From contig JABYQQ010000014.1 in the NCBI GenBank assembly GCA_022605405.1, positions 868,001 through 932,000 of the forward strand: a DNA stretch of 64,000 bases, given 5' to 3'. Both the position numbers and the translations under genes were made by a program. Source of the DNA: Earliella scabrosa. Its lineage: Eukaryota; Basidiomycota; Agaricomycetes; Polyporales; Polyporaceae. Under the pieces are notes generated by a model. It was given only the letters and a program-made list of their open reading frames with translations. It ran no database searches and had not been told where the DNA came from. Position 1 is the first letter of the stretch; the number at the start of each line of letters is the position of its first letter. Positions 34,492 through 56,755 of the stretch are shown piece after piece.

Positions 34492-35953
34492 TCACCACAG
34501 GATAGGCGCCGCAGGTTCGCGGTCCAAACACACGCTCAGCTGGTAGTCGCCCGTTCGTTTCGCCCAGCGATACATCTTCAGCCCGTCGTAGCCTCCTCGC
34601 GGCCCGCGTATCTCAGCCAAGACGGCCGCATGCGTCGGTGGGTCGTCAGCCAAGACGAAGTACGCCTCCTTGAAGGAGCGTTGGCGATCGTAGATAAGCA
34701 TCGTCGTCTCCGTCCCCATCCCAGCCTGGATCCTCACCAAGAAGATCTTCTCCCCGTGAACGTTGGGCGGCGGACCTGCGCTCGGGTCGCGTACGGTGTG
34801 GAAGGTTCCTGGGTGGTTGACGCCTTTCCGGCTGATCCACTCTGAGCCCCAATTCTCGTAGCCAGGGAGGTAAGTCCGGAAGACGACCGTACACCATGTA
34901 CCCCCTTTCAGCGACCGACAAGTCTTCTTGTGATCAGGCCAGTCCGCTTTCTGGCAATCTAAAGGAGCGCGCTCAGCGATTGCAGCTAAGGACCGAGGGG
35001 ACTGGCATGAGACCTACCTGCACCACAGTAGGAGACCGACTGGCACTGCGAGCATCGACTAGTCCGCTCCTTCCCGCAGATGACGCACCCAGTATCGTTG
35101 TTCAGGCTTCCCAGCGCCTCAAACGTGAGGGGACCGACAGGCAGCAGAATGGATACCTGGAACCTCTCCTCGTAGGGCCCTCGCTCAGGCTTGTAGTCCG
35201 GCGGGAGGAGCTTGGCGTTCATTGCGAAGAGCGTCTGCAGCAGTTTGAGCTCGAGGACTGTTGCTGTGATCATGCGGGCCCCGTCCTGGACACCGCGAGC
35301 GCGATCGTTGTCATATTGAAGCTGGCCCCACTGTATACCTTCAAGGCCGTCCCGTCGTGTGTAGATTCGGTAGAGCAGGACGATCGCCGGAGTGTGTTTG
35401 TCTATCTCCAGTATCGAAAGAAACTGGATGACAAGATATCAGCACATAGGGACAAGTACGAAGCGCAAGACGATAGTCCCTAGTATATGCACACTCAGGA
35501 GACACGTACCCGGATGTTGATCGCGTACTTCTCGCACTTCGGATCCTGGATCATGCACCACCTGGCCCCGCTGTCCAACGCATTCCCAATAGACATCATC
35601 GTCTGCCTGAGATCCCAGAACGCGTTCGAGTAGAGCGACACGGGGTTGTACTCGCGTCCCGCACGCTGCGCCATGTGGTGCTCCGCCATCTCCTGGTAGC
35701 TCGTTCGCCGCACCGCATCGAAAATCGGGCGTCCTCCTTCGCCCGACGCGCCGTTCCAGGGCTTCTTCATCGGCCAGGAAGGCATTGTTGCAGGGTTGAG
35801 CGTGGTCGCGATGTTGTGGCGGTTCTGCGAGGCGGCGAGCGCGTCGCGTACGCGTTTTTCGAGGACAGTGTCCTTGAGCTTCGTGTTTTGGGGCAGGTTG
35901 ATGCCCATGTCCGACAGGACCTGGAGCGTCTCTGACCGCGAAAGCGGATCCAT
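34492..35953 (-). CDS. MYND zinc-finger protein, family copy A
   Basis: First of five paralogues in this window, function unknown. Exons (minus strand) 35953-35510, 35423-35018, 34958-34492 give 438 residues. Three blocks are shared by all copies. An N-terminal module begins MDPLSRSETLQVLSDMGINL. A middle module contains a hydrophobic stretch (SILEIDKHTPAIVLLYRIY). A MYND finger at about residues 261-297 has spacing C-x2-C, C-x2-C, Y-C-x3-C, W-x2-H-x3-C. The C-terminal domain begins PPNVHGEKIFLVRIQAG and ends GGYDGLKMYRWAKRTGDYQL. MYND fingers bind proline-rich partner peptides. No SET domain, nuclease or kinase motif is present, so this looks like an adaptor, by inference. Intron 2 cuts the finger between its Y-C and the next Cys. 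Confidence 0.93.
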
Positions 35954-36044
35954 AAGAAGTTTTTACAGTACAGTAGAGGGTGAGTGTAGAGTAAGGTGGA
36001 AACTTGAGCTCGAGGGAGAAAAATAGGATCGCTTACCAAGCGCC

Positions 36045-36050
36045 CTTATA
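36045..36050 (-). promoter_or_regulatory. TATA box of MYND copy A
   Basis: TATAAG on the minus strand, about 92 nt upstream of the start at 35953. Copies C and E have the same word 51-66 nt upstream of their starts. Confidence 0.45.
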
Positions 36051-36165
36051 CAGGAGGCTCAGAAAGGCAAGTGACCACGTTCGAATCCACGCAGGTGAAA
36101 ATACCCACTCACACGCACACGCATTCAATCTATCTGAATCACCTTGAAATGACATTGAACACAGA

Positions 36166-37679
36166 TCACCACATGATATCAAGGTTTGGCTTTCTGTCCA
36201 AGCAGACCGTCAGCTCGAACTCTCCGGTCCTCCTCGCCCACCGATACATCTTCTGTCCCTCCGCCGCGCTCAGGATCCTGGGGCCATGACTCTCCGCGAA
36301 GAATTCTCTGTATAGCTCCAGGTCGTCCTCGCGGCAGAAGAAGACCTCTTTGAACGACCGGTGCCGATCATAGATCATGAGCCCCGAAGGATCAGACTCC
36401 ACACTCGGCCGCAGCTGAATCTTCACCAAGAACGTCTTCTCCCCGTGCACGTTGGGTGGCGCGAGGTTCGCGCTCGGATCGAACGGACGCATGACGCTCA
36501 TAAACTTGGTGACAATCGCGTCCATGTCCTGCGGGTGATTCGTGGAGTGCTTGCTATAGAACTCGAGGTTGCAGTCCTCACTCCCGGGCGGTTTCATGCG
36601 GAAGGGGACTCTGACCCAGCGACCACCCTTGAGGAGGTTGCACTTCGGCTTGTGTGCCGGCCAATCGATCTTCTGACAGGCTGTGTGCAGTCAACGGAAG
36701 CGATCAATGGCGACATATACGAGAGTAGCTATCTGACGCACTTCCGCTGCAGTACGACACGGACTGGCATCCGGAGCACCGCTTCACTTGCTTCTTCCCG
36801 CACACCGCGCACCCAGGGTCGCTGTTCAAGCTCGCCAGAGCCTCGAAGCCAAGCGGAGCAATCGGAAAGATCACAGAGGTCTGAAATCGCTCCTCAAACC
36901 GCTCCTTTCCCGGATGATACTCGGGCGAGAGAAACTGCTTGTTGATGTCGAGCAGCTTCAGAAGCAGCTTGAGCTCCAGCGGCGACGCCTTGATCTCCGA
37001 CATTCCAAGCTCCTCGCGTCCCATGCGCGCGTTGTCCCGGTTCCAGGTATAGCAGGCCCACTCTGCGCCGTCTGCCCCGTTATAACAGTTGTAGGGGCGA
37101 TACGTGACGACGATGCCAGGTGTTCCCGCATCATCCGCGGGCACGATAGCGAGGAACTAACAAGCCCGAGCGTATACGTGCAGCATGAGACCGAGCCGTC
37201 GAGCTTGAGGACGAACAGAAGGTGGAAGGAAGACGTACCCGGAGCATGATCGCACACACCTCCGCCTGTGGATCCTGCACAACGAGCCACCTTCGTCCCA
37301 TGTCGAGCACCGTCCCAATCCCAAGCATCGTCTCACGCAGGTCGCCAAACGGATCTTCGAACAGCGTCCGCTCCTGCACGATTCCCGCCTGGTGCGCCCG
37401 CTGGTTGACATCGCCCTCGTACATGTTGCCCCTCCGCAGCGCGCTAAACATCACCGTCCGGCCTGCCTCTGGTCCTGTCGCGGCGGGCCATGGCCACGCG
37501 CGGGCAGTGTCTGGGTTGAGAGACTCGAGCGGGGGGAGGTTCTTCCTGTTTTGCGCGAAGTTGAGCGCATCGCGGAGCCGCTTCTCGAGCACGTCGTCCG
37601 GGAGCTTCGTTGTCTTTGGCAGGTCGATGCCCATACAGGACAGAATCTTGAGGGTCTCTTCTCGTGTGAGTGGGTCCAT
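36166..37679 (-). CDS. MYND zinc-finger protein, family copy B
   Basis: Same three-exon architecture as copy A, its downstream neighbour: 37679-37239, 37156-36742, 36680-36166, giving 456 residues, the longest copy. The start at 37679 (MDPLTREETLKILSCMGIDL) is set by alignment with the paralogues. The finger begins GCAVCGKKQVKRCSGC and ends with CQKIDWPAHKPKC. The C-terminal domain has an extra segment before NVHGEKTFLVKIQL and ends QKMYRWARRTGEFELTVCLD. The middle module is the most divergent of the five (it reads PADDAGTPGIVVTYRPY where others have FEIDEKTPAIVVLYR). All zinc ligands are present, so it is probably functional. Confidence 0.93.
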
Positions 37680-38259
37680 CTCGGGCGGTCTTAGCTCAGA
37701 CTCAGCTTGGGATACCTCCTTTGCGAACGAGTGGGTGGACACTGGAGACGTTGATGTCGCGATACTAGCTCAGTGCTCAGGCGTAGCGGGCAGGTGAGGG
37801 TCCCAAGTCAGTAGCACAAGTAACCCTCTTCAAAGGTTGAATGAGAGCCTGAAGATCCGGGAGGTTCCAGAGTGGGGCAAGAGTCGGGGTAGGATGGTGG
37901 AGGACCCAGTGAGCGGGGCCGTAACAGGGGCGGTGCTCGCGAGTCCTCCCAATATGGCAGGTGACTAGGTTCGGTTCTTTCCTGGTGCTACCATCCTAGC
38001 TCGGGCCCAGTGTGCCCTGCCCGCCCGTACGTGTCCAGCATCAGGGGATAATCTCGCTGGTGTCGGAAAACAAATACTCACGCCTGATAACCAGCTGCCC
38101 ATAAAAGGGTATCCTCAAGTGCCCGGCTAGTTCTACATATAAGTATAAAACACGTTACACAGATACCAATCACATAGGATCCGGCTTCTGAACACAACAT
38201 GTCAAGGCGAGGTCGGCCTCATAATCAAAACGAGGCAAGTAACCAACCCCCTCTTTGAA
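37680..38259. other. Intergenic, right of MYND copy B
   Basis: About 580 nt; promoter side of MYND copy B and flank of the tRNA. No further gene seen. Confidence 0.4.
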
Positions 38260-38338
38260 GGCACTACCAGGGATCGAACCTGGGTTTTGGGAACACTTAC
38301 ATCAGAATCCCAAGTGATAGCCACTACACTATAGTGCC
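38260..38338 (-). tRNA. tRNA-Gln (CTG) with 8-nt intron
   Basis: Folded by eye: the 7-bp acceptor stem GGCACTA/TAGTGCC pairs perfectly. A D-arm with TAGTGG follows, then an anticodon stem TGGGA/TCCCA, and a T-arm CCAGG-TTCGATC-CCTGG. The anticodon loop is 15 nt, eight too long. The surplus (38294-38301 on the plus strand) sits one base after anticodon CTG, the canonical site for nuclear tRNA introns. Anticodon CTG reads CAG, glutamine. The next base, at 38259, would give discriminator T, usual for eukaryotic tRNA-Gln. Confidence 0.9.
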
Positions 38339-38766
38339 TGTGAGTAACGGTCTCACAGAGTCATCAATACCAAGTGACATATTTCCAGATGTAAGTATTA
38401 GTGCCGTGCCAGTGCGTCAGTTCATCCAAAGTGACTGGAACTGACTCCTACAGACGTTGTTCGATTGGCAGAATAGTGCGCATCTCTAGTACCGCCGTGC
38501 GGCGTGACGTACCGTGACCCATTTACAAGTGTACCGGCTGAGTGAGGCGACGGACGCAGCGGCTTATGAGGAGTGGTGAATCTGGTGATACATGTATCGT
38601 GCACATACGACTAGAAGTACAGTAATCCTACTTAACATGTGTGATCCGCGCGCGAGGGTTGTGATAATGCAGAGGATGAACGAAACCGAAGCTGACACAG
38701 TCCGGTATCGCATCGGAAGTGTACGAGTGTTCGGAGCTGGCATAGTTCAACTGACATACGAGGGAC
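38339..38766. other. Intergenic between tRNA-Gln and the proline-rich gene
   Basis: About 430 nt; nothing recognisable beyond the tRNA 5' flank and the 3' side of the neighbouring gene. Confidence 0.4.
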
Positions 38767-41414
38767 CTACGAGGGTTCCGAAGTGGTCGTCCCTTCAGAG
38801 CGGAGCGGCGCGAAGATCTGGAACGACAGTGGCAGCGGGGAGAGTCGCCCCGCAGGACTTCTAACGTCGAGCTTCCCGCGCCTGAAGCTAGAAGGCGAGC
38901 CTATCGTTCTAGGAGTGCCCGAGCGCCTCGACGGAGGCTCGGGATATACCACGCCGGCGGGTATTGGGGCCTCATCGTACCGCCTGGGGCTGCCGCTGCC
39001 GCGCTGCGGGATGGGCAGGATCTCCTCTTGGCGGATGGGTAGTGGGTTGTCATAGGGGATCGGGACGCTCTCTTGCGATGGTACATATACTGGGTTACGT
39101 GGTGGGATTGGGAGGGCGGAATTTGAGGGGATAGGTAGTGGGTTGCTTGGGGGCGGGATGGGCACAGGCGTATTCGACGGGACGGGGATGGGTGTATTTG
39201 ACGGCACTGGAATCGGGGCCGTGGAGAGGGAGCCTGTCTGCGTTGGTGGCGTCAGTGGGACGAACCCAGGAGGGAACTGACTAGAGAAGGAGTTCATCGG
39301 TGAGTCGGTGAAAGGCGGGAACCATTGTTCCGCCTGTCCTGGTGGATTGTATCCCGGGATTTCCATTCGCATGACGACGATGTTGTCGGATGGGGCTGCT
39401 GGTAGTGGCTGGACGCCGTGCTGCTCCGGGCTGAGTAGGTGTGGATGTGTGATGGTCGTCTTCGCAGAAGAACGGCTCGTAGAAGGAGTAGACTGAAGCA
39501 GACGAGAAGTCAGTACACTACGCACAGCAGGGCAGGGCGGGCCAAAATGAGACTTACAGGAGATTCAATAACAATATCTGGAATTACAGGCGGAGGAGGA
39601 ATTACGGGAGGTGGAGAGGCCCGATCGCGGTCTCTGACCGTTTTACTGCGAAACCTGCGCTTGAAGAGTTTCTCGATCGGGCTCGTTGAAGATTGTGTGC
39701 GTTCGGAGCGCGCAGATAATTGTTCCGCGCCATCCCGATGCTCTGGCGGAGGCGGGCGTACGGGCGCTGGGAGATCCTCTCTAGGACGGGGACCGCGCGG
39801 CGACCCGACCTGTCGCTTCATCCCCGACCATCCGTAAAGACAATGTCAGCTCAGGCCCGTCTATAGAGATGCTGTTTCCGACGTACGTCCTCCCTCGACG
39901 TTCTGCCCGACGTCGAAACGTGCAGGTTACTCTTCGGAGCGCCGACGAGGTCGAACTGTGAGATGTTGGTCGACGCTTTGGATTGCGGGGACATCGGTTT
40001 GCTCGCGCTTGATCGCGTCAGTGGAACGCTTGATGGGACGCTGCCGCTGCCGCTGGCCGCGTACGCGTAGTCACGAGATCGGACCTCCGGGTTGGGTGCC
40101 GTGGACGTACTCGCTTCTGGGGGCTGAATGGGGTAAATCTGAGGTGCGGGGACAGGAGTAGGTGACGCAGGGGTGAATGGTCTTGACAGCTCATGCGGTG
40201 GCGGGAGGCGGATCTCCTCGTTCTCGTCGGCGTATGGGATGTACCCATCTGGTGGTATCTCCACAGGAGGATGTACTGGGGATGGAACGGGTTCGTAAAT
40301 GGGGATCGGGGCGGGGATTTCTCCGTCGTCGAGCGAGCGTGGGGCAGGATTGGGCACCGGTATGCCGGCGGGTGTGTCTGCTCTCGAGTGCGATGGCGAT
40401 GGGACGTTGAGGGGTGTCACGACTGTAGGGATGGGTAGTGTGGGGGCATGATGTGCAGCATCGGGAACGTGAGTGCGCTGGCTAGCTCGTGACGTACTGA
40501 ATCTACCCGCCGCATGAGCTTAATGGAACCAACTGACAACGGCAGAAGACACACCTAGATGGGGGTCTTCTTGGCTGCGCTGGCGGCGTTACTCTGCCGG
40601 CCGACAGCGTCGAAGGCCCAGGGGTTTGACTGCGATACTCAGGAGCCGGCGTCCTTACGCGGATTTCGGCAGGGCCAGGTGTACGGCTGCGATACTGGGG
40701 AATGCGGGGCTGCGCCTCCTCATCAGGCACTTCCTCCACCGTCGTCATACCATACCTTCGTTCTCTGGGCTCCTCGATCTCAGCCGCCTCCTCGAATCCC
40801 ATATCCTTCCCTCTCGAGAATCCCTCCTGAAAGCCCTCATGCCTACCTTCCTCTCGTGCTCTGGCGATCAGCTGCTGCTCACGATACCTCCTCGCCGTTG
40901 AGCGCGCACGGGCGGCTTCCGCCTCCGCCTCGAGCTTCTGCTGCTCCAGCTCGTTCACCAGCTCCTGCGCACGGATGATCTCGCGCTGTGCGTCCTCAAG
41001 TCGGTACTTGTATAGCGTAAGCTCCTCCTTCGCCCGCGATGCCTCCGCCTGCGCGAGCATCGTCGCCTCGTGTGCCGCACGTAGCTTGCGCAACACCTCG
41101 ATGATGCGGCGCTCCGCGTCCTCGGCCCGTGCCTTCTCGCTCTGCATGCGATCGGTCATGAGCGCGAGCTGGGTGCGGAGGCTCCGCGAGTCGGACTGCT
41201 CTCGGGGCATGAGATGCGAGAAGAGCTTGGAGGGGACGCCGGGGATGTAGCTGTCACGGGATTCGCGCTCGAAGCGCGTCCGACTGCGGGGCGAGTTGTG
41301 TGACGAGAGCGAGGAGGTGGCCGAGGAGCGCAACGACTTCGACGGGCTAGTGTTCGACCGCGCAGGTAGCCGTCCGCTGCTGCCAGAGGACGAGGATGGT
41401 GAGTCCGCCGACAT
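38767..41414 (-). CDS. Proline-rich coiled-coil protein, unknown
   Basis: Four exons close in frame: 41414-40555, 40496-39887, 39809-39558, 39492-38767, giving 815 residues. Residues 1-60 are Ser-rich. About 85-195 is a long coiled coil (MTDRMQSEKARAEDAERR through LVNELEQQKLEAEAEAARA). Then comes a basic, Gly-rich linker (EEGRHEGFQEGFSRGKDMGF). From about 290 onward the chain is low-complexity Pro/Ser, including a run of near-repeats of PIPVPSNT and PLPIPSN type encoded at about 39090-39260. No signal peptide or helix for a membrane. I do not recognise the family. A cytoskeletal or scaffold role would fit the coiled coil plus disordered tail, as inference. Composition makes any name risky, but splice closure supports a real gene. 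Confidence 0.85.
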
Positions 41415-43280
41415 GTGTGGAAAAGGGAACTCGCGGCTGCGGCACCAACGATGAGTACAACATGCACGAGGACGTCACAGGACAACAACAGCAGTATGTG
41501 TGCACGCACCGGTCTCGTTCTTCGAGGATCCGAGACATACGGGATCGAACGGTGGCGGGAAACGGTGGCGGACGCGTAGTGGGCTACAGACGGGAGGGGG
41601 CAGCGCGGGTGGAGGCATGGACAGCGGGGAGGGGGCGCGGCATGGTCATCGCGAACTTGTAGATGAAGAGAGACAGAGATCGGCCGCTTCTTTGTGCGAA
41701 CCTACGCCGCAATATGGTGTGGGGACCCTGCTAGGCGTTGCAGCGGCGTGTTTTCCGCGCCGCTCTCGAGGCGTGGACAACACGTGTCGATCGATGTGGT
41801 ATCTCGAGCGTTCATGCTCAAGCAGCGGCAAGTGACCGGGCTCCAATAGACTCTTGTTATGCGCCTGTACAACCGTCAGTAAAGAACAAGGTCGTGACTG
41901 ATTATAGCCCGGCAGTGCGGTATCGAACTGAACCCGTGATGCCGACGTGAGGCTGCGTGGGAGATGCTTCCGCGGCAGATTAGCTTCGAATAGACACTCT
42001 GACCTCGGTCGCTCATCGCACTCGCATAAGTAGCACAAGCCCTTTCTAAACCATCTATCGAGCTCATCTCCGCGACGCTGTCGCAGATCACGATGTGCGA
42101 CGGGCGAGATTACGAGTCTAGGACTGAGTGCTTCCCCAGTGGCACCACTTCGGTCCGATTCGTCGGCCACAACAAGTTCAAGGGCGCGTACCTTCATGAA
42201 GAGGCCGGATCCCATCCGACGCTGGGTATGGTCCGATGTAGGGCCTTGTTTTGCTTCTTGCCAGTGGTCGAGGCTGGAGGGAGTCGCCCATGGTCACTAG
42301 CGAGGTCACCAGGGGCGATCTGTTGACTGGGGCATGAGTCAAGACCAGTCAATTAATAATAGGCAACACGTACTGGTTTCCGCACATGGGGTTCCAGAGC
42401 AGGCGGTACGAATACTTCCATGCTTGAAGCTATCCTGAACTCGAGGTTGTGCAAGTTGATTTGTGTCGTCGGTCGAGCGGAGAGTACTGAGTGGTACTTC
42501 TTTTCTCCAACGCAGCCCCATGTCAGTATATCTGTACTCATATGGAGTAGCGGGAACAGTACCAGTAACAGTAAGATAGGATGCAAGACTTAGAATATGT
42601 CAGCGATCAGTGGAAGCGGCGCTTAGAATCGTTGGTGTTGACGTACTAGTAGGCGCCCGTCCCCATCATCTCCTCCTGAATCCCGATTACTTACGTTTGA
42701 CCATGGCCACAACTCGAGCTCTACGAAATTGCGTCTGGATCTCTTATAACCCCGTAAAGCGCGAGCCGTGCTACAGACCATGCACGCACGAGTATGAATT
42801 CATGTGGTCCAGCCATCATGATTACATCCACCAGATACCTGTCAAGTCGCGCCACGTCAACTTCACTGCAGTAGCGCACTGTGATTGTTCCGAGTACACA
42901 AGGCTAATGGCACGGCACCCCTTCTAATCTCCTAACACTTCTGCACTGATTTCCTGTCGTCTTGAACATGATACATCGTTGGATACTATGTGGTCCTCGG
43001 ACCCGAGTCTGTGCGTCTGTTCGCGGTGAGTCATCTTGTCCTGACCCGGGTGGACGTTAAGACGATCGTACCAATCCAGGCAACCCCGCGACAAATTCCG
43101 GAGCCTGTACCAGTGGCGCACGAGTCTAGGCAGCCGTCAAGGCTATGAATGAAATGCTGCCATATCAGTGGAACCCAAATACTTCTCGAGGCTGTGGTCT
43201 GTCATCGTTCAAACCCCTTTAGAACCCCTGAACCTTCCATCTTGACCATGCTTCCCAGGTCCACACTGCGGTAGAGGACA
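41415..43280. other. Divergent intergenic, 1.9 kb
   Basis: Lies between two divergently transcribed genes. The best small candidate is a 77-codon minus-strand frame near 42353-42586 with a hydrophobic N-terminus (MHPILLLLVLFPLLHMSTD), but it lacks splice support or a recognised domain. I see no repeat or RNA gene. Confidence 0.35.
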
Positions 43281-43288
43281 TATATATA
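43281..43288 (+). promoter_or_regulatory. TATA box of AAA+ ATPase gene
   Basis: TATATATA about 55 nt before the start codon at 43341, followed by a C/T-rich leader. Confidence 0.45.
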
Positions 43289-43340
43289 CATTTCCAGGCC
43301 AACATGGAGGTTCCTCTCCCTCTGTCCTAATCTCCCAAAT

Positions 43341-46060
43341 ATGCGCCGCATGCTCTCCCAATCTCGGGCTTCGCGCCTCTCCTTTCTGAGGAAGGACTCT
43401 GAAAAGGATGGGGAGACAGCACATCTGCACACTCCTCACGGAAGCGACGACACAGACACGTCAACGACGGTACCTTCGCAGTCCTCAGCACCGCTCTCTC
43501 CTGCGAACCTGAAGGTCAAGCGCGTGGACCACTACTGGAGCACCTGGTCCAAGAGCTGGAAGTATAGGAACACAGGCTCCGGCGTCATAGCCGAGGCGGT
43601 GCGTCCCGTCGGCAACGGTACCGACAACGATCCCTGGCAGAACTTCTGCTTCGTCGTCGTCCGAAAGCTGCCCCAGCCCCAGAATCACGACGGCGAGATC
43701 ACCTTCCAAATCGTCGTCAAGAGCCCCTATCTGCTGAAGGCGTGCAAGGACGTCGTCGGCCAGGTCCCAGGCATCTCCTGGACAGCGGAACCGCTCGAGG
43801 TGCCTTCTTTCGCCACGCGCCTGAAGTAGCTCGCTCACCTGAATCTCTATTCTCACGCCCTCAGCTCGACCCACATCTCCTGATCGCCTTCTTCCCGCAG
43901 TTCGAGCATTACGAGAAGACGCTCCATACCAAGAAGCGCACGGCCGAGGAGGACAACGTACTCGCGACTGTGCGTGTGCTGCTCGACTACTTCCGCAAGG
44001 ACTACCGCGCCACGCTCGCGAAGATTGCGAACCTCACCTCACACGGCGAGATCACCTTCGAGCTACTCTACGCCATCCTCATTCCGCGCACTATCCTTAT
44101 CACCGAGTGTCCCGTCACGGGCGAGCCTCGCGCGCTCCAACTCCTTTCCGCCACCAGGCTCAACCCGGCTCCCAGCGCGCCGTATGTCTTGCTTTGCGAG
44201 AACGTCGACTCTACTGAGGAAGGTGCCCACCCCGGGCGAGTGCGTGAGAACGCCACAGGTGCCTCGTCTGGCACTCGGAGCGGTCATCGCCACCGCCGTG
44301 CTCCCCTCCGACGGGGTACGGCGATGAGCAGCCGGTCAGGTGTAGGCACACTTCCTGACGGCTCGAAGACGACAGGCCCATTTGGCCGCGTGCAGAGCAG
44401 AATCGTTCTGCCTATGTTCAAAGGTACAGAGAAGATCAACTCGCTCGAGGCGTTCCCGATCGAGTACCACCACGACCCCGAGGGCATGCGGCGAGCGCTG
44501 GTTGAGCGCGGTCGCAAGTGGGCAGGCTTGAGGGGCATTCACCATGTGCATTACAGCGGGACTGCGGCGCTTGTAATCTCCGCTATGGGCTGCAAGAAGG
44601 CGATCAAGTACAACGTGAGTGCTCGAGCTATAAGTGGTATGCGGCATGCTGAATGTCAGGTATAGGTGGACTCGCGAATCATGATTGACAGAGGTACGCC
44701 TAGCAACACATTCAGTTCCCGTATTCAGCGAATGACCGAGGACATGAAAAGGCAACTTCATCAGACTGAACCCGAACTACGATATCCCCAAGCCTGCGAG
44801 TGCTCAGCAGGAGCAGAATCCGCTGGACGATCCCGATGCGTACTGGCAGGGCCCTCCAAGTGCGTTATATCCTATCTATACTAGAGCGAACGGGCGGGCT
44901 GACCACTTGGGCTCTCAGTGCCTATCGAGATGCAGCAGAACCCCAACGTTCCGACGCTCGAGATTCGGACCCGCCGCCCGGAAGAGGAGACACCGTTGAC
45001 CGACGAGGAGCTCCTCCTCGCCTCGCCCATTCTCTACGGGTTCAGTCTCTCAGACAAGATCTGGCGTACGTCCCCTATGCCCCTATCATGAGGTCCCGCT
45101 GTCTGACATGTACAATGCTAGTCGAGTTCAACGTTGAGAACATCAGCCCCATCGAGTGGAACAACGAGGCATTCGACGGGCTTGTGCTTGCCGCGGACAG
45201 AAAGAACCTCCTCCGCTCGCTCGTCGACGCACACAACGCCGATCTCGGCTTCGACGACTTCGTGCAGGGCAAGGGTCAGGGCCTCATCATCAACCTCTTC
45301 GGCCCGCCGGGTGTCGGCAAGACGCTCTCCGCAGAGGCGACGAGCGAACGCGTCCATCGCCCGCTGTATGTCGTAGGCGGCGGTGACCTCGGGACCAAAG
45401 CGGCCGAACTCGACGCTGCGTTGGAGCGGGTATTCGACATCGCGACGAGCTGGAAGGCGATCGTGCTCATCGATGAGGTTCGTCCTGCGTCGTCTGTCTC
45501 ACTATCACCTCAACGCAGGATGTGCTGATTTGACTACCCCAGGCCGATGTGTTCCTCGAACGCCGCTCACTGCACGATCTCGAGCGAAACGCAATGGTTG
45601 CCGTCTTGTACGTCCCTCTCTCCTACTCCTCGCCCGGAGCCGTACCGCTCACTTATGCTACGTGCCTCCCCCACCCCGCAACAGTCTGCGCCACGTCGAG
45701 TACTACCGCGGCATCCTCTTCCTCACCACGAACCGCGTCTCCGCCTTCGACGAGGCCTTCCTGTCGCGCATCCACGTCGCCCTGCACTTCGGCGAGCTCT
45801 CCGTCCCCGCCAAGGTGCAAGTCTGGCGCGCATTCCTCCGCAAGGCCGGCGTGCCCGACGGCGACGCGGGCTTGAGCGACGACCTCGTGCAGAAGCTCGC
45901 GGAGCGCGACATTAACGGGCGTCAGATCAAGAACGCGTGCCGCACGGCCAAGTCCCTGGCCTTGAGCCGCAACGAGCCCCTCGGGTTTGTGCATCTGGCG
46001 GAGACGATGGACGCGATGGAGGAGTTCACGGCTGAGTTTGCTGCGCTGGGAAGGGCGTAG
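43341..46060 (+). CDS. AAA+ ATPase with DUF7025-type N-terminus
   Basis: A P-loop ATPase of the fungal group with a DUF7025-like N-terminal region. Eight exons close in frame: 43341-43799, 43865-44614, 44666-44693, 44752-44859, 44919-45065, 45122-45477, 45543-45607, 45685-46060, giving 762 residues. The N-terminal half contains YWSTWSKSWKYRNTGSG and LDPHLLIAFFPQFEHYEKTL. The core has FGPPGVGKTLSAEA (Walker A), KAIVLIDEADVFLE (Walker B, split by an intron), ILFLTTNRVSAFDEAFLSRI (sensor 1 and arginine-finger region) and INGRQIKNACRTA (sensor 2/lid). All catalytic residues are present. About 50 residues after ENVDSTEE in exon 2 are low-complexity and might be a retained intron. Substrate unknown; members of this group remain mostly uncharacterised. 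Confidence 0.92.
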
Positions 46061-46187
46061 TTTCGGAGGGTTGTATGTATGATGGGTGATAGTCGCTCGC
46101 GTCGAAGATCTTGAGGTGTAGACAAGTACCTTTACATACGAAACGACCGTGTAGAATTCTATGAGCCAATTTAAAGCCAGCCTCCTA

Positions 46188-47626
46188 TCACCACTTCGTA
46201 TCCGTCTGCGGCTCCCTATCCACACAAACACTAAACTCCCAATCACCCGTCCTCTTCGCCCACCTGTACATCTTCAACCCCCCATACCCTCCCCTCTCCC
46301 CACGCATCTCCTCACACAGCTCATCAAACACCGCCCTATCGTCCTCGCGGCACACAAACACGACAAACGACCGCTTCCGGTCGTACACCATGAGCTCGCT
46401 CCGCGTCGGCGCGTCGAGCCCGACCTGGAGCTTCACGAGGAACAGACGCTCGCCCCACACGTTCGGCGGCGGCGCACCCGGGTTGGCGGCTCGCACCACG
46501 CTCGCCCCGAACGCGGACTTGTGGTTCATCGTCGCGAGGTACGCGCCGGGCGCGAGCCCCGGCGGGGCGGGGCGCACGCGGACCGCGCGCCATCGGCCGC
46601 CTTGCAGCGCGCGGCAGGCGGTCTTGTGCTGCGGCCAGTCTGCTTTCTGGCACTCTGCTCGCCGGGTGCGGTCAGCGACGTGCGCGAGATCATTGAATAG
46701 AGACAGAGATGGTCGAGCACTCACGGGGCTTGCAATACGTGACAGACTGGCAGCGCGCGCACCTACTCTCCGCCGTCCGCCCACAGACAGCGCAGCACGC
46801 CTTAGCGTTCAGCCTCGAGAGCGCGTCAAACTCGAGCGGGCCGGCGGGGAGGAGGACCGAGACGTCGAACGCGCGCTCCCGGCGCTGCTTCTGAACGTGG
46901 ACGACGGCGGCGGCGGGGAGCAGGTGCGCGTTCTGCTGGAGGACGCGGAGGAGGAGCTTCTGCTCGAGCGCGGTCGACTTGATGTTCAGGAACGCGCTCC
47001 CGATCGCGGCCGGGTTCTTGTCTGCTTGGTCGAACGCCCACTCGGTGCCCTCGGCCGCGGCGGTGCGGTCGAAGGCGCGGTACACGACGACGATCGCGGG
47101 TGTCTTCTCGTCGATCTCGAAGACGTGTGCGACCTGCGGTGGGGTAATGAAGCGAGGGTTAGCGCGAGTGTCCATGGAGCAAGCCAAGCCAAGTGCGGCG
47201 ACGGACCCGGAGGTTGACGGTACATTGCCCGTTCTCGTCTTGCAGGATGCACCAGCGCATGCCCTCATCGAGGAACTTCCCAATGCCCATGATCGTCTGG
47301 CGCAGATCCGCGAACGGGTCCGCGTACAGCTCTGGCGGGCCGGCTCCGAGGCCCAGACGCCCTGCCATGTTGCGACGTGCCTCTTCGAAGTTCCCCCGCA
47401 TGACTGCCTGAAAGAGCGGCCTGCCACCGGGCTGGGGAAGCATGGGCCACTCGGAGAGCGTCTTGAAGTCGAGCGAGGGCGGGAGGCGACCTTTGTATTG
47501 AGCGGCGTCAAGAGCGTTTCGGAGGCGTCGGTCCAGGTTCTCCTCAGAGATCTTGGTAGTAGCTGGAAGGTCGACCCCCAAACACTTGAGGATCTGCAGC
47601 GTCTCAGTTCGAGTAAGAGGCTCCAT
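46188..47626 (-). CDS. MYND zinc-finger protein, family copy C
   Basis: Exons 47626-47207, 47133-46725, 46654-46188 give 431 residues, the shortest copy. It starts MEPLTRTETLQILKCLGVDL. The middle module has FEIDEKTPAIVVVYRAF and a basic insertion (VVHVQKQRRERAF). The finger runs CCAVCGRTAESRCARC to CQKADWPQHKTAC. The C-terminal domain starts NVWGERLFLVKLQVGL and ends GGLKMYRWAKRTGDWEF. Closest by eye to copy D, its upstream neighbour, which shares the final DREPxTDTKW, so the C/D pair probably arose by a tandem duplication separate from the A/B pair. Intron 1 uses the unusual donor gtccgt, shared with copy E. Confidence 0.94.
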
Positions 47627-47686
47627 GGCCCGGTAGGTAGCTGAGGGTGGAGGAGGATGGTTGCCGAGTGGAGTAAAGAAGACTTA

Positions 47687-47692
47687 CTTATA
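47687..47692 (-). promoter_or_regulatory. TATA box of MYND copy C
   Basis: TATAAG on the minus strand 61 nt upstream of the start at 47626. Confidence 0.5.
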
Positions 47693-47782
47693 CTACGTCT
47701 TCGTGCCACTTGAGGCTTTGTCACGGCAAGAGTGCAGTCAATGACGCTTTCACGCAATGATAGTATCACAATCTCCCCGCTC

Positions 47783-49233
47783 TCACCATTTGGTGTCTGT
47801 CTTGGGCTCGCGGTCCACACATACATCGAACTGCCAGTCCCCAGTCCTCCTCGCCCACCTGTACATCTTCATGCCACCATACCCACCGCGCGGGCCCCGC
47901 ATCTCGTCGTAAAACTCCTCAAACAGCGCAGGCGCGTCCTGACGAATGAAGAAGGCCCGGAAGGAGCGCATCATGTCGTAGACCATCATAGTATCCGGTT
48001 CCCCCTCCACAAGGCCAACCTGGAACTTCAACGTGAACAGCTTGTCGCCCCATATATTTGGCGGGACCGTGGAGGCAATCTCCAGAGGGGCCGCGTCCGT
48101 CGTCGGGTATTGGAATCCATGGCCAGGGGCGGACGGATTGTGGGTCAGCACTTTGAGATGCGCGTGTTCTAGGCCGGGCAGAGCGGTTCGGAAGGGGATC
48201 GTGCACCACTGGCCACCCTTGAGCGAACGACAGGTCACTTTGTGGGCCGGCCAGTCCGCGTTCTGACATGCTGCAAGATGGGAACTTGGTAAAGGTGTGT
48301 TGCGCGATTTGCATGAGCTGTACTGACCGGAACCACAGTACGAGATCAGATGGCACTGTGAGCACCGGCTCGTTGTCATCATACCGCATATAGCGCAAGC
48401 CTGCTTCTCGTTGAGCTTCGCGAGCATGTCGGACTCGAGCGGTTCGAGGGGAAGGATGAGGGAGACCTTGAACCGTTCTTCGCCTCGCCCCCTCTCGACC
48501 GGAAACTCGGGTGGGACAAGGGGCGCGTTGTGATCCAGAAGTTTCAAAAAGAGTTTCTGCTCAAGCAGGCTGGCCGTGATGTCGAATACGGAATCCCCAA
48601 GGGCGGGGGCGTTCGACTTGCATTGGTCGGAGACCCAATGCAGACCCTCGACAACGTTGTCGGTGTTGAAGTGACGATAGAGCACTACAATCGCCGGTGT
48701 ATCTTTGTTGATCTCGAACACCGCGATCATCTACGACCGGGTATGCTTGAGATCAAAGGGGCGCGAACGAAAATGCAAGCAACGTTACGCACCCGGAGTT
48801 TGACGGCGGACACTGCGCCCGTCTCGTCCTGCAAGACGGACCACCTCGCCCCGCCGTCAAGGAACATCGCGAGGTTCATGATGGTCTGTCGCATGTCCTC
48901 GAAAGGGCTCACGTACAGCCTGGGGGCGGGGCGTTTCGTCTCCGCGACTGCTGCCTCGATGATCTGCCTTGCCTCGTCTACGTTGCCCCTGCCCATCGCG
49001 TCGAATACAGAGCGGGCAGATTCGTCGAGTTCCCCAGGAGTCGCGAGAGGCCAGCGTTTCAGAGCCATAAGATTGAAGTGCGGTGGGAGACGAGTTCTGT
49101 GCTGAGAGGCGTCGAGTGCACTGAGGAGACGACGCTCGAGGGCGGCATCTGGAAGAGTGGTGCTCGCTGGGATCTCGAGGCCCATGGTCTTGAGGATTTC
49201 GAGGAGTTCATCGCGAGTGAGAGTAGGGTCCAT
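47783..49233 (-). CDS. MYND zinc-finger protein, family copy D
   Basis: Exons 49233-48793, 48730-48328, 48270-47783 give 443 residues. It starts MDPTLTRDELLEILKTMGLE, one residue longer at the N-terminus than the others. The middle module reads FEINKDTPAIVVLYRHF. The finger runs ACAICGMMTTSRCSQC to CQNADWPAHKVTC. In the core, HLISYC replaces the QSVSYC seen in A and B, but every zinc ligand is kept. The C-terminal domain has NIWGDKLFTLKFQVGL and ends GGMKMYRWARRTGDWQF. It lies 150 nt upstream of copy C in the same direction; no TATAAG is visible at the expected place, only AATAAG. Confidence 0.94.
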
Positions 49234-49938
49234 GGTGGATGAGGACAGGAGGAACGCAGCTCGCTGACTTATTGGGATCCGGACTTACAGAGAGGGCGAC
49301 GGCTCCGAGTCCGACATGGGCCAAGACACCTTGCTGAGGCTCCTGATAACTAGTAACTCCAGGGAGACTCGCTTCGCCTGCTCCGGTCCATCCTACGCTG
49401 TGCTCGGAAGACTAGATTGAGACGAAACAGACGGGAGCGTTTTGGTGATGGAGGTCAACATGGTGGTAGTGCGCAAAGGGCACCCGCGCTCGTCTCTCCG
49501 AGTCCGACCCGCGCCTCTTCAGGTTCTCCCCGGGCCTCCGCTTCCTGACTTTGATGGGCACTACTTACGCTGTGCACTGTTCTGAGCTCTCAAGCTTCAA
49601 GACCCAAGGCGGATTGCCTTGCGATCCAAAGTCTGACTTTGACAATCATACACTATGGCCCATGTGCTTCGTACCACGCACCCGTAGTCTATCCTGGGCA
49701 ACGTTCCACACGCGATGGATAGGACCAAAGTCATCAGGGCACGTTCGTGCGGAGGACGCGAACTTCGAACGCATCGTTCGGAAGATGGAACGTGGAACGT
49801 CGAGAGCAGGTATGCCAGCTCAACCCACTAGGACGTTCTGATTCGCATCTGGTCATCCAGCAGGTGCCTGGGGTGATATACACACGAGAACGGTTCGGCT
49901 AGATGCCCACTCATTCGCACCTCGTCGTCTGCACCCCA
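49234..49938. other. Divergent intergenic region
   Basis: About 700 nt between MYND copy D and the phosphatase-fold gene, which point away from each other. Shared promoter region; no additional gene or repeat seen. Confidence 0.45.
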
Positions 49939-51213
49939 ATGTTCACGCTTCGAGCGTTGCTGGCTCTCGCGCTCGCCGCAGGCCTCGGGGTGGTGCACGC
50001 AGACGAGCGCATCCGCCTCGCGACGTACAACATCCGCCAGGACGTCTACCCCAACAGCATCACGGTCCAGCAGTCCATCGACTCCCTCCCCGACCCTCTC
50101 AAGAAGCCCACCATCTACTATGGCAAGGTGTTCGAGCAGCCATGGAGCACGCGGCGGATCAAGGTGTACCAGCACCTGAGGAACGAGGGCATCGTTTTGG
50201 CTGGTGAGTGTTCGATCCTTCTGCAAAGTGACGGAGAGCAGCGGTATATTGAGGAGCACGCGGGACAGGCTTCCAAGAGGCCCTCATCCGGCAGGTTAAC
50301 GACCTCGCTGAGCTGTTTGGCGACGACTGGGCATGGGTCGGGGTCGGGCGCGACGACGGCATCGCAAAGGGCGAGTTCAACCCCATCTTCTACAAGAAGT
50401 ACGGCACGCCCCTCTCTTCATCTCGCAACTCACTCAGATCTCCCGCTTGCTCTCGCACCCAGGTCCGCCTTCGAGCTCGTGTCCAACGACACCTTCTGGC
50501 TCTCGTACGTCCCCATCCCTCTCTCCCACCCATGTCCGTCCCACATACCCCCACCCACGCAGCAACACCCCATTCGAGCCCTCCAAATACCCCGGCGCAG
50601 GCTCCACCCGCATCTGCACCGTCACCCGCCTCACGCTCACCTCCGACCCAACCAACAACACCCCGCTCACCCTCCTCAACACGCACCTCGACAACCTCTC
50701 CTCCGCCCAACGCGCCCTCGGCGCCTCCCTCCTCCTCCTCCGCGCGCGGCACGAAGCCCACGCAACGCGCGGGCCCGTCCTCCTCTCCGGCGACCTCAAC
50801 AGTCCCCCCTCCGGCTCCGGCGCGGGCGCGTACCAGATCCTCACCGGCCAGGCCCCGCCCGTTGCGATCAACGCGACGTTCGCCGCGCGCTACGCCGTCC
50901 CCGAGGGTGTGGACGAGTTTAGGATGCTCGATCTGCGCGCGGAGACGCCGAGGGTGAGGGTGAGCGGGGAGCACGCGACGTATACCGGCTTTGGGCTCCC
51001 GTTCGACACGTCGGCGTACTCGCGGATCGACTTCTTGTTCGCGGGGAGCAACGGGCAGTGGTGAGTACTAGTACTTGTGGTCGTTGCATGACCGAACTCA
51101 CGCGTTGTGGACGTAGGAGTGCGGACGCGTACCGCGTCGGGTCTTCGCTGACGGACGACGGTGTCCTGGCGAGCGACCACCGGCCGGTCTTTGCGGATGT
51201 GACGTTGCAGTGA
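49939..51213 (+). CDS. Secreted endonuclease/exonuclease/phosphatase-fold protein
   Basis: A metal-dependent phosphoesterase-like enzyme of the EEP (DNase I-like) fold. Exons 49939-50203, 50269-50398, 50463-50504, 50563-51060, 51117-51213 close in frame to 343 residues. The signal peptide is MFTLRALLALALAAGLGVVHA. Signature motifs follow in order: RLATYNIRQD (metal-side Asn), GFQEALIRQVNDL (metal Glu), LLNTHLDNLS (catalytic His), LLSGDLNSPPSG (catalytic Asp and Asn), YSRIDFLF and ASDHRPVFADV (SDH). All catalytic positions are present. Substrate cannot be read: nucleic acid, phospholipid or inositol phosphate are all possible. The start at 49939 is preferred over an in-frame ATG at 49903 because it gives a clean signal peptide. 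Confidence 0.92.
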
Positions 51214-51803
51214 TTGTACTCCTCGAGAGGCGCAGCCTATGTAGTGTTGCGTGTCTGTATACATGGCATATACGGGCAGCGTTGCGATCATTGCAGCCCT
51301 GGTCCCTAGACTGACCATCATCCCTGCGGGCATACCTGATCGTCATACTGAGCAACCACTCGCCACAGCGCCCGTCGGAAGCAATGCTTTGCAACCCGTC
51401 CGCGCAAGCAATACTGCAAACGCATGCATACGATGATGACTAGAGATAGAGGTAGGGGTGGAATGATGTACAAATGCAACGAGAAAGCATGCCAATATAC
51501 ACAGCAAGATACCGCTTCAGACTTCTTCCGCTCACAACCCACATACGCAGGGGAGCCTACGCACATAAACCAACGGCCAGCGCCCATTCCGTCTTCGTCT
51601 CCGTCTCCGTCTCCGTGTTCATCTCCCGGGCGGCCTGTCGTGCTCATCTGTGTTGCGGAAACCCCGAGTCAGCCCCCTCCCTCGTCTCCTGCTGACACAG
51701 CGAACGGAGGACCAGACCAGGGGACATGGGGGAATGCGAGCAGACATTGGAGGGGGGCAGAGGAGCAGATGGACAGAGGGGAGCGGCGGCGATAGAGCGG
51801 GGC
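51214..51803. other. Convergent intergenic with short repeat
   Basis: About 590 nt between two converging genes. Contains a short ctccgt microsatellite at about 51590-51617. No gene supported. Confidence 0.45.
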
Positions 51804-53720
<1,917 letters not shown>

Positions 53721-55067
53721 TCTGAGAGGCTCTGTGCTGGGGTCGTACTGGATGTCGGACGAGATGGGTGTGGGCGACGATAGGATGTCGATGGAGAGCA
53801 AGGGAAGGGAGGGGAAGCAGGAGCAGAGCGCGTTACTTATAATTAGGGTTATAGCACACTTGATGCAGTACTCACACCCTCCTGATGCGAATCTCGGCTC
53901 GCGTCCGGCGCACGTCCGGCACGTCTTCCGTCCTCTCCGCCATCCTCTCCGCGATGCCTCTCCCCGTCCCGCCTCTCGGTGCCGTGTCCGGCGAGGCCGT
54001 GCGCAGTGGGCTGTGGACTGGCCGAAGGCGGCGCGGCCACCGGTGCAGAGAGCGGTGCGGACGACGCCCACGCTCCTTCTGCCGTCCTCACCTTGTACTC
54101 TTCGCCCTGCTTCTGTGTCTGATGTGCGCCTGGGCTTGGATATCGATGGCTGTCGTTGCTGCTCTGCCCTGAACGGCTCTCCTTGCTGCGATGAGAACGG
54201 AGCGACCGACTGTGCTGGGAGCCCATGTGGAGGTGATGTGTGAAGTGAAGACTTGTGCAATGTGGACGATTAGGCGAGGATACGGTATTGGTGCAGCAGG
54301 GTGGATGTGGCAGAGGTCAGTCATCGCTGAGCGTCGTGTCGGTATATATACACCCGAACAGCTCGCTGTCTTCCATTTCAACCAACACCACGCCCCGCGG
54401 GCGTGCTCCGAGAAGCGATCGTATCTGGCGTCGACTCTGCTGCGAGTTCCCTCGCCCAGCTCGAGAGGCTGTGGTGCACCGCCGAATAGCCGCTGTGGCG
54501 GCTTCTCGCTCGCGTACGTCTACCCCGTCCTCTTGCAGCTTGCTCACAAATGCGCTGCCACCTCCCAGAAGTACTCGCCTTCCTGTGCACGTGTGTCTAT
54601 GCTATGCCTGTACGTATGCTGTTCAAAAATCCGATCCCTACTACAGTCACCCACGAAGTCCGCATTGGCGCGCTTGAGTTCGTCACCGCGTACGGCTCAT
54701 GTCATGTTGAACAGCCTTTGCTCACAGCCGAACGCGCCGTCCCTCATCGCTCGATACCCTGGGCTTGGATAGAACTTCGGCTTGAAGCCGTCTCTTGTGC
54801 CGAAGCATTGCTGCATATCATATGCCTGCGTGTGGTCGCAATGCAGTTATCCCCGTATGCCTATGCCTATCGGGCCCGCCAAGCACGCTTGAACTTCAGT
54901 GACGTCCAGGCGAAGAACGGCGAGCGATGTATGTGACGTCACTGATGAGTAGGTACTGGGCTATTATCGTCCTGCTCAGACTTGAAACAAATAATCGCGT
55001 CCAAACCCTCCTAGGTCCAGTCCGGGCTCTCGGGGTGAGTGAGAAGTCCATCAGGAGTGACAAAAAG
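53721..55067. other. Upstream region of the CaMK gene
   Basis: About 1.3 kb up to the tRNA-Arg gene. It contains a 125-codon minus-strand frame (53849-54226) starting MGSQHSRSLRSHRSKESR, 129 nt ahead of the kinase start, which could be a leader ORF or chance. Nothing else is supported; the other open frames here are Ser/Arg/Pro text without splice sites. Confidence 0.4.
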
Positions 55068-55162
55068 CGACCAACCTGGGAGTCGAACCCAGAATCTTCA
55101 GCTTGTTCCCCTACCCATAGTAGGACCGGAAACTGACGCCTTAACCATTAGGCCAGCCGGCC
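55068..55162 (-). tRNA. tRNA-Arg (CCG) with 22-nt intron
   Basis: Folded by eye: acceptor stem GGCCGGC pairs with GTTGGTC using three G-U pairs. The D-arm is GCCTAATGGTTAAGGC, the anticodon stem TCAGT/GCTGA, the variable loop AGATT and the T-arm CTGGG-TTCGACT-CCCAG; the discriminator is G. The anticodon loop is 29 nt, so 22 nt (55104-55125 on the plus strand) is an intron one base after anticodon CCG, which reads CGG (arginine). The mature length is 73 nt. Confidence 0.9.
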
Positions 55163-55231
55163 GACAAACGACCTTCCTCATTGGTGCACCTGAGGGGCTG
55201 CGCAATATGGATGCTAACTTGCCTCCATACT

Positions 55232-55237
55232 TATAAG
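55232..55237 (+). promoter_or_regulatory. TATA box of MYND copy E
   Basis: TATAAG 51 nt before the start codon at 55288. The tRNA-Arg gene starts (on the other strand) only 70 nt upstream. Confidence 0.5.
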
Positions 55238-55287
55238 TGCGCACTGCACGCTGTCCCTGTCTCATTCGCGACTTGTTCACAACTACC

Positions 55288-56755
55288 ATGGAACCACTCA
55301 CCCGTGCAGATATACTCCAGACACTGGCATCTCTCGGTGTTGAGCTCCCTGCTGACACCAAGCTTCCAGACGGCGCTCTGCAGACGCGCCTTCGAGAGGC
55401 CCTAGATGCTGCTCAATACAAAGACCATCTTCCGCCCTCTCTTGACTTGGGGACGCTGCCGGGATGGCCCCTATCAGCTCCTGGCCAATCTACGCCCTCT
55501 TCCCGGACACTTCTCGCAGCTTTCCAGAGGGGCAACCTGGACGAGGCGCGACAGGCCTTCGAGGGGACTCTCGACGACATTATCTCCAGCGGCGCGAACC
55601 CGTTCATGGAGCTCCGCCGGGCGATCACGCGCATGGCGCACTTCGTGGACAACGGCAGCTTGTGGTGGCTCATTCGCGACGGGCGCGACGAGAAGCGCGC
55701 CATCAGCATCCGCGTCCGTCAAGCTTTTCCCGTCTGACCAGCGTTTTCGTCCTGTTGACGACGATGACCCCTATATCGTTAGGTCGTCTCGGTCCTGCGA
55801 ATCGACGAGAAGACTCCCGCGCTGGTCGTGCTCTATCGTCCCTTTGACCGCTCGAGTGGCAGTACCAAGTGGATCCAGGAACAGGTCGCCCACACCCCAT
55901 CCGATGCCGGGAGGGCCGTCGCGATGAGTGTCTCGCCACTCGAGTACAAGATCCTGCTCAAGGTCCTCAAGGGAAACGCCTCACTCGTCCCCGAGGGCTT
56001 CGCGATCGAGCGGCGGTCGAGCGAGAAGCAGTTCCACGCGTCCGTGCTGCTCCCGATCGGACCGCTCGAGTACAGCGCCTTGGCGAAGCTCAACAGCCAG
56101 GTTGGATGTGCCGTGTGTGGGAAGTCGGGGGCGAGCCGGTGTTCACGGTGCCAATCCATCTCGTACTGCGGCTCCAGTATGTGCTATGAGGCCTAGATCG
56201 TGCGCATTTCTGACTCGGAGCCCCAACGCAGCATGCCAGAGTGCCGATTGGGCGAACCACAAGGACGCATGTCGGGAACACTCGCTCCGGGACGCGCAGT
56301 GGGTGTCCATCGAGATGTCCTCGCTGCCGATCAGCCCGCGGAGGCTCGGAATGGCAGACTCGGGGAAGGACTGGCACGCGGCGACCCTCAACAAGTACAG
56401 CAACATCGACCTCGGCTTCTCGGACAAGACGAGCGCGGCCAACAAGCTCGACCCGTCGAACGCACCCCCGAACGAGCACGCAGACAGGCTCTTCCTCATC
56501 AAGCTGCAGGGCGGGCTGCCCGGGATGGGCCCGCCGGGCCATTTCATGATCTACGACCGCAAGCGCACGTTCCAGACGTTCATGCAGCGCGATAGCGACC
56601 CTGCCCGATTTGTTGCGGTGCTCACAGAGATGACGGCGTCCCCTCGGACGAAGTACGACGGCTGCAAGATGTATCGATGGGCGAAGAGGACGGGTGACTG
56701 GGAGCTCAGCCTATGCTTGGACCGCGAGCCAAAGCCGGACATGTGCAGGTGGTGA
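55288..56755 (+). CDS. MYND zinc-finger protein, family copy E (inverted)
   Basis: Fifth paralogue, on the opposite strand and 6 kb from copy D. Exons 55288-55713, 55783-56176, 56232-56755 give 447 residues, with the same intron phases (0, then 1). It starts MEPLTRADILQTLASLGVEL. The middle module reads LRIDEKTPALVVLYRPF. The finger runs GCAVCGKSGASRCSRC to CQSADWANHKDAC, with Asn where the other copies have Pro. The C-terminal domain has NEHADRLFLIKLQGGL and ends KMYRWAKRTGDWELSLCLD. The first intron has donor gtccgt as in copy C. The segment between finger and C-terminal domain is longest here. The tRNA-Arg gene abuts its promoter, a possible duplication or inversion breakpoint. Confidence 0.94.

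What the first reader, a model, noticed from the sequence alone, without database searches (positions are those of the whole stretch)
34492..56755. Five-copy MYND zinc-finger family with identical gene architecture
Five genes (431-456 residues) share an N-terminal module (M-x-P-L-x-R, then a helical repeat), a middle module (around D-x-x-T-P-A-I/L-V-V-L-Y-R), a MYND finger, and a C-terminal domain bounded by NVxGxKxFLVKIQ and KMYRWAKRTGDW. All have three exons with intron phases 0 and 1. Seen directly: all zinc ligands and frames are intact in all five. Established: MYND fingers usually recruit partners, often beside a SET domain, which is absent. Inferred: a locally expanding, possibly undescribed adaptor family with two new domains flanking the finger.
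Basis: partly seen in the sequence, partly recalled or inferred. Interest (0 to 1): 0.75.

Follow-up and report, generated by a model that had tools for sequence, protein, structure and literature searches.

The report
Old mushroom family of MYND proteins
Five neighbouring genes in a bracket-fungus genome belong to an old family, found here only in the polypore order, in which a common zinc finger sits between three protein modules that no domain database we used names, probably making adaptor proteins that bring other proteins together.

The parts
35510..35953 (-). gene A exon 1 (N-terminal helical module, start of middle module)
   Evidence: ATG at 35953; donor GTACGT, phase 0
35018..35423 (-). 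gene A exon 2 (middle module and first half of the MYND finger)
   Evidence: phase 1 donor GTAGGT inside the finger
34492..34958 (-). gene A exon 3 (second half of MYND finger, linker, C-terminal barrel, stop); protein 438 aa
   Evidence: zf-MYND 45.8 bits
37239..37679 (-). gene B exon 1
36742..37156 (-). gene B exon 2
   Evidence: donor GTGCGT, phase 1, inside the finger
36166..36680 (-). gene B exon 3; protein 456 aa
   Evidence: zf-MYND 48.1 bits
47207..47626 (-). gene C exon 1
46725..47133 (-). gene C exon 2
   Evidence: donor GTGAGT, phase 1
46188..46654 (-). gene C exon 3; protein 431 aa
   Evidence: zf-MYND 44.6 bits
48793..49233 (-). gene D exon 1
48328..48730 (-). gene D exon 2
   Evidence: donor GTCAGT, phase 1
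47783..48270 (-). gene D exon 3; protein 443 aa
   Evidence: zf-MYND 40.4 bits
55288..55713 (+). gene E exon 1
55783..56176 (+). gene E exon 2
   Evidence: donor GTATGT, phase 1
56232..56755 (+). gene E exon 3; protein 447 aa
   Evidence: zf-MYND 43.3 bits
46191..46613 (-). C-terminal module of gene C (residues 291-431), the part predicted alone as a six-strand, one-helix barrel

Best explanation
An old, partly clustered family of four-module MYND proteins, restricted to Polyporales as far as the searches reach (helical N-terminal module; alpha/beta middle module; MYND zinc finger split by an intron; six-stranded C-terminal barrel). Shown: intact genes, common architecture, signs of purifying constraint, named relatives in Polyporales only, old duplications. 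Inferred: the proteins are intracellular adaptors. The MYND finger holds a short proline/leucine-rich motif of a partner, as the ETO, DEAF-1 and BS69 fingers do, while the C-terminal barrel, with its constant K-M-Y-R-W-A-x-R strand, and the middle module hold a second partner or ligand. The paralogs differ in which partners they join.
For: Gene models and motifs. zf-MYND is the only convincing Pfam family. Gln279 and Trp283, the equivalents of the DEAF-1 corepressor-binding residues Gln529 and Trp533 named in PMC3555993 (passages read), are present in 32 of 32 rows. The C-terminal barrel is the next most constant part after the finger (17 of 93 columns invariant, against 12 of 37 in the finger, 5 of 99 in N and 11 of 151 in M). 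The 440-residue model of a relative is fairly confident (pLDDT 83.6, pTM 0.76). No credible enzyme family: only single-member hits at E 0.067 or weaker. Tree and dN below dS.
Against: No binding, localisation or expression data. Of the other three DEAF-1 positions, Glu514 is Arg in 32 of 32 rows, Thr516 is Ser in 13 and Thr in none, and Met512 is Met in none, so the ETO-type pocket is only partly kept. P0023 has lost a zinc cysteine, and five listed proteins have no finger or an incomplete one as modelled (P0025, P0026, P0027, P0030, P0031; possibly gene-model errors), so the finger may not be essential to every member. Outside the 32 counted rows the barrel motif varies (P0034 KMHRWVKR, P0027 KIYRWAKR). 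An enzymatic role of the middle or C-terminal module is not excluded.
Confidence: 0.55

Rival explanations
1. The C-terminal barrel is a far-diverged HIRAN/OB domain that binds nucleic acid, so the proteins are nucleic-acid-targeted MYND co-regulators (finger recruits protein, barrel reads DNA or RNA).
Confidence: 0.15
2. An ordinary branch of the general MYND expansion of mushroom genomes: fast birth and death of loosely constrained paralogs with no family-wide mechanism.
For: This genome has 91 zf-MYND matches (a lower bound; matches, not genes). PMC9386254 (passages) reports 50 expressed Zf-MYND genes in Ganoderma lucidum. A table row in PMC4469406 (passage; column heads not seen, taken as ten genomes) shows zf-MYND counts from 1 to 41. 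Copies decay (C12 relic).
Against: Flanking modules are constrained and shared by the full-length members, not just the finger. Sister genes are kept across genera for A, C and E.
Confidence: 0.25
3. Assembly artefact: alleles or repeated pieces of one gene placed side by side.
For: None found.
Against: The five copies differ at 52-63% of aligned residues, lie in both orientations with other genes between B and C and between D and E, and three have different starred sister genes in other species.
Confidence: 0.01

Closest known systems
zf-MYND proteins of the ETO / DEAF-1 / BS69 type
   Same: MYND finger with eight ligands; the Gln and Trp of the peptide-binding face are kept in 32 of 32 rows; probably works like them in recruiting partners through short motifs (inference)
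   Different: Finger lies between modules with no named domain; Glu514 equivalent is Arg in 32 of 32 rows; no SAND, PHD, bromo or PWWP family listed in Pfam
SMYD proteins (SET plus MYND)
   Same: The finger is the best sequence match to a solved structure (SMYD3, E 3e-11 for the five-gene profile)
   Different: No SET family listed for any member scanned; only about 60 residues around the finger align
HIRAN domain (HLTF, Rad5, bacterial HIRAN)
   Same: Predicted strand order and number, one helix between strands 4 and 5 (description)
   Different: No sequence or profile homology, long insert after strand 1, no N-P-Y-D-type signature by eye, no helicase or RING domain listed
Public 'hypothetical' / 'MYND-type domain-containing' proteins of Polyporales (P0001-P0035)
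   Same: Same family, matching most or all of the query for most of them
   Different: Unnamed and uncharacterised; no held paper contains both MYND and Polyporales (for a narrower term)

Membership tests
zf-MYND (PF01753) | Profile match above the curated cut-off | tested here: met
   40.4-48.1 bits against 22.7 for A, B, C, D, E and F
zf-MYND (PF01753) | Eight zinc ligands C-x2-C, C-x2-C, C-x3-C, H-x3-C | tested here: met
   Invariant in the five window genes; 32 of 32 rows for seven ligands and 31 of 32 for Cys265
zf-MYND (PF01753) | Binds a proline-rich short linear motif | not testable with these tools
   Needs a binding experiment
ETO/DEAF-1-type corepressor-binding MYND | Met512, Glu514, Thr516, Gln529, Trp533 (DEAF-1 numbers, PMC3555993) | tested here: not met
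   Gln and Trp kept 32/32; Glu position is Arg 32/32; Thr position S 13, A 10, G 6, K 2, gap 1; Met position T 15, A 7, G 4, V 3, E 2, R 1 (columns matched by residue spacing)
SMYD | SET domain split by the MYND finger | tested here: not met
   No SET family listed at E <= 1 in the six genes or in 28 aligned relatives
HIRAN (PF08797) | Profile match | tested here: not met
   0 of 5 C-terminal regions match any Pfam family at E <= 10, while HLTF scores 90.8 bits; the genome-wide HIRAN search matches C1 (over the cut-off) and C7 (under it), not this cluster
HIRAN (PF08797) | Profile-profile homology | tested here: not met
   Probability 0.2% (nine HIRAN) and 0.5% (eight non-human HIRAN) against 98.8% for the easy positive control
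HIRAN (PF08797) | Six-stranded barrel with one capping helix between strands 4 and 5 | tested here: met
   Secondary structure order in both predicted models; models only, barrel closure not measured
HIRAN (PF08797) | Fold match to solved HIRAN chains | tested here: inconclusive
HeH/LEM (PF12949) for the first 50 residues | Profile match | tested here: inconclusive
   2 of 24 members at best E 0.015; GAAD 2 of 24 at best 0.0016; in full-length scans GAAD 2 of 28 at 0.021 and no HeH

The most novel reading that the evidence does not exclude
The family is a polypore-specific class of co-regulators in which a diverged HIRAN/OB barrel reads nucleic acid (its basic K-M-Y-R-W-A-x-R strand being the reading face) and the MYND finger, held between barrel and middle module, recruits a repressor or activator. 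Each paralog would couple a different partner, so the old cluster would be a small regulatory code of its own.
Probability: 0.1. Interest if true: 0.65.

Novelty: new variant of a known kind. Interest (0 to 1): 0.35.

Why it matters
In Ganoderma lucidum 50 Zf-MYND genes were expressed, and 10 of the 13 differentially expressed ones peak in primordia or fruiting bodies (PMC9386254, passages), yet what such proteins do is little known. Defining one discrete, conserved family, so far seen only in Polyporales, with fixed boundaries and a near-constant motif gives a Pfam-ready unit and a clear target for structure and partner searches. If the barrel binds nucleic acid it would turn a 'zinc finger of unknown function' into a regulator class.

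Tried and rejected

Homology searches only reach proteins sharing short exact words, and two of three scored only the roughly 8000 candidates sharing most words, so distant relatives outside Polyporales could be missed. In one search three weak matches reach beyond the finger (C6:194818-195093, C6:2549543-2549866, C14:148828-149211); the two on C6 lie in fetched loci where the flank profiles found nothing, the one on C14 was not fetched and is untested. NCBIfam has bacterial/archaeal models, so its silence says little.

Rows dropped: P0025, P0026, P0027 and P0030 from conservation counts (32 rows kept: the six genes and 26 of the 30 proteins then in hand; P0031-P0037 came later and were not added); those four plus fragments P0036 and P0037 from the tree (37 rows: 6 and 31 of 37); P0027 and P0030 from the structure alignment (28 of 30).
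Full report
What is there. The window is a stretch of a 51.67-Mb, 48-contig genome (G000:C14:868001-932000). Between 34492 and 56755 it carries five genes: A (-), B (-), C (-), D (-) and E (+). I rebuilt them from splice sites. Exons (window coordinates, 5' to 3' of the gene): A 35953-35510, 35423-35018, 34958-34492; B 37679-37239, 37156-36742, 36680-36166; C 47626-47207, 47133-46725, 46654-46188; D 49233-48793, 48730-48328, 48270-47783; E 55288-55713, 55783-56176, 56232-56755. Introns are 55-86 nt, the first in phase 0 after a conserved Arg codon, the second in phase 1 inside the MYND finger, between its fifth and sixth zinc ligands. Proteins are 438, 456, 431, 443 and 447 aa and 37-48% identical. 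Zinc ligands are invariant.

How many copies. Searches of the whole genome in six frames with C and with B found the same flanking modules in only one further complete place: gene F, C14:941352-942850 (+), 437 aa, same phases 0 and 1, about 9.4 kb beyond the window's right edge. One fragment on C12 (731282-731515, 52% identical to residues 342-418 of C) is a relic. Locus L048 there is collinear with window 44064-46522 (four longer pieces at 67-78% DNA identity and one of 21 bases): the AAA-ATPase gene next to gene C plus the 3' end of C, with many stops in the three frames shown. The other matches all overlap the finger. Most stay at it; three weak ones reach further (residues 201-296, 219-311 and 246-363 of B, 27-38% identity, each with one stop inside). 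Profiles of the N, middle and C modules, run on the six-frame translations of all 86 fetched (overlapping) loci, score strongly only in cluster loci; outside them there are the C12 relic (30 bits) and one chance-level match (E 0.84). The C14:148828 match was not fetched and so not tested.

Is it real protein-coding sequence? In all 15 pairs of the six genes third codon positions differ most, and dN (0.36-0.66) is below dS (1.0-1.9, near saturation; Nei-Gojobori). So the copies are old and look constrained.

What databases say. Pfam lists zf-MYND and only weak zinc-finger cross-hits for A, B, D and E and for C and F. In 28 aligned relatives, 26 match zf-MYND; the other families are weak, the commoner ones being other zinc-finger models. 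The C-terminal region of the five window genes matches nothing in Pfam at E <= 10 or in PDB sequences at E <= 10. The first 50 residues give HeH/LEM in 2 of 24 members (best E 0.015), GAAD in 2 of 24 (best 0.0016) and three single-member hits at 0.02-0.17, and nothing convincing in PDB (three chains, best E 0.056). The middle module gives one COPA/B TPR hit in 1 of 16 (0.0042) and short PWWP similarities whose one low E-value comes from a two-copy chain. NCBIfam gives three single-member hits at 0.04 or weaker.

Who has it. Three protein searches returned 27, 15 and 34 proteins, 37 different in all. 35 carry an organism name, in eleven genera: Daedaleopsis, Dichomitus, Fomes, Pilatotrama, Trametes, Ganoderma, Lentinus, Cubamyces, Cerioporus, Polyporus and Rhodofomes. 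One species of each genus was looked up and all eleven lie in Polyporales, ten in Polyporaceae and Rhodofomes in Fomitopsidaceae. The remaining two (P0036, P0037) are unnamed short-contig fragments. In one search, with the limit at E 1, the list ends at 1.9e-41, so the family is discrete at this sensitivity. Clustering recurs elsewhere by what the listings show: the four Daedaleopsis proteins give the same longest-contig length, as do the four of Cerioporus, and Lentinus 1413095/1413096, Ganoderma adspersum 000157/000168 and G. sinense 08963/08965 have near-neighbour tags.

Age of the cluster. A maximum-likelihood tree of 37 rows, drawn with a midpoint root, needs five changes to explain the window genome's six genes, and starred branches force all five. 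C pairs with a Daedaleopsis protein (100/100), E with another Daedaleopsis protein (100/100) and A with a Fomes protein (100/97). B pairs with a Ganoderma protein (92/83, not starred). D and F group together (94/83, not starred) beside two Daedaleopsis proteins. The duplications separating these lineages therefore predate the split of the genera, which goes against 'locally expanding'.

What is constant. In 32 full-length rows, invariant columns are 5 of 99 (N), 11 of 151 (middle), 12 of 37 (finger), 0 of 40 (linker 299-338) and 17 of 93 (barrel). The longest constant stretch is K-M-Y-R-W-A-x-R (C residues 404-411, 7 of 8 positions invariant), on the fifth strand of the barrel. Among proteins outside those rows P0034 (KMHRWVKR) and P0027 (KIYRWAKR) depart from it. 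The barrel thus looks like a functional site of its own and not a spacer.

How it probably works. MYND fingers of ETO, DEAF-1 and BS69 bind short motifs of corepressors and other proteins (PMC3555993, passages). Of the five DEAF-1 residues named there, Gln529 and Trp533 correspond by spacing to Gln279 and Trp283, present in 32 of 32 rows. Glu514 corresponds to an Arg in 32 of 32; Thr516 is Ser in 13; Met512 is Met in none. Peptide docking is thus plausible but with a different specificity. I infer a two-handed adaptor: the finger for one partner, barrel and middle module for another. The only functional pointer in print that I saw is general: in Ganoderma lucidum 10 of 13 differentially expressed Zf-MYND genes peak in primordia or fruiting bodies (PMC9386254, passages). 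Whether members of this family are among them is not known.

Surroundings. Between the copies lie other genes: an AAA ATPase (about 43.3-46.1 kb, extent by my reading), a coiled-coil-like frame (about 40.5-41.5 kb; best Pfam match under its cut-off), a protein kinase (about 52.1-54.3 kb) and two tRNA genes, with a transferase gene after E. I saw nothing that suggests a common pathway.

Verdict. I found no description of the architecture in the listings. The family is new in name, but it sits inside a mushroom-wide richness in MYND proteins. Interest is moderate.

Noticed in passing
G000:C8:767993-1094421 (outside the window): 34 of the 91 zf-MYND matches of the genome lie in this 327-kb stretch (35 on contig C8; counted by eye): a far larger MYND cluster. 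Flanking-module profiles of the present family find nothing convincing in the 24 overlapping C8 loci that were fetched.
   Followed up: partly
L048 (G000:C12:729782-733015) against window 44064-46522: Decayed segmental duplicate of the AAA-ATPase gene and the 3' end of gene C, 67-78% identical DNA in its four longer pieces, with many stops.
   Followed up: partly
43318-46060: AAA-family ATPase gene with several introns (AAA E 2.6e-8); by my reading of the frames it resembles fungal BCS1-type ATPases (recalled, not tested).
   Followed up: partly
33521-34294: Peroxidase family 2 frame, E 1.4e-25; heme-thiolate peroxidases of this kind are of interest in wood decay (recalled).
   Followed up: no
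57375-59051: Transferase family (PF02458) gene just after gene E, E 3.8e-35.
   Followed up: no
P0025, P0026, P0027, P0030, P0031 (public proteins): Family members with no MYND finger or an incomplete one as modelled, most with the C-terminal region still recognisable; because an intron splits the finger these may be gene-model errors or true losses. No DNA was at hand to decide.
   Followed up: partly
all six genes, intron 2: The phase-1 intron inside the finger hides such genes from six-frame domain scans: of the six genes only B's exon 2 (C14:904743-904811) is among the 91 zf-MYND matches, so MYND counts from unspliced DNA are too low.
   Followed up: yes
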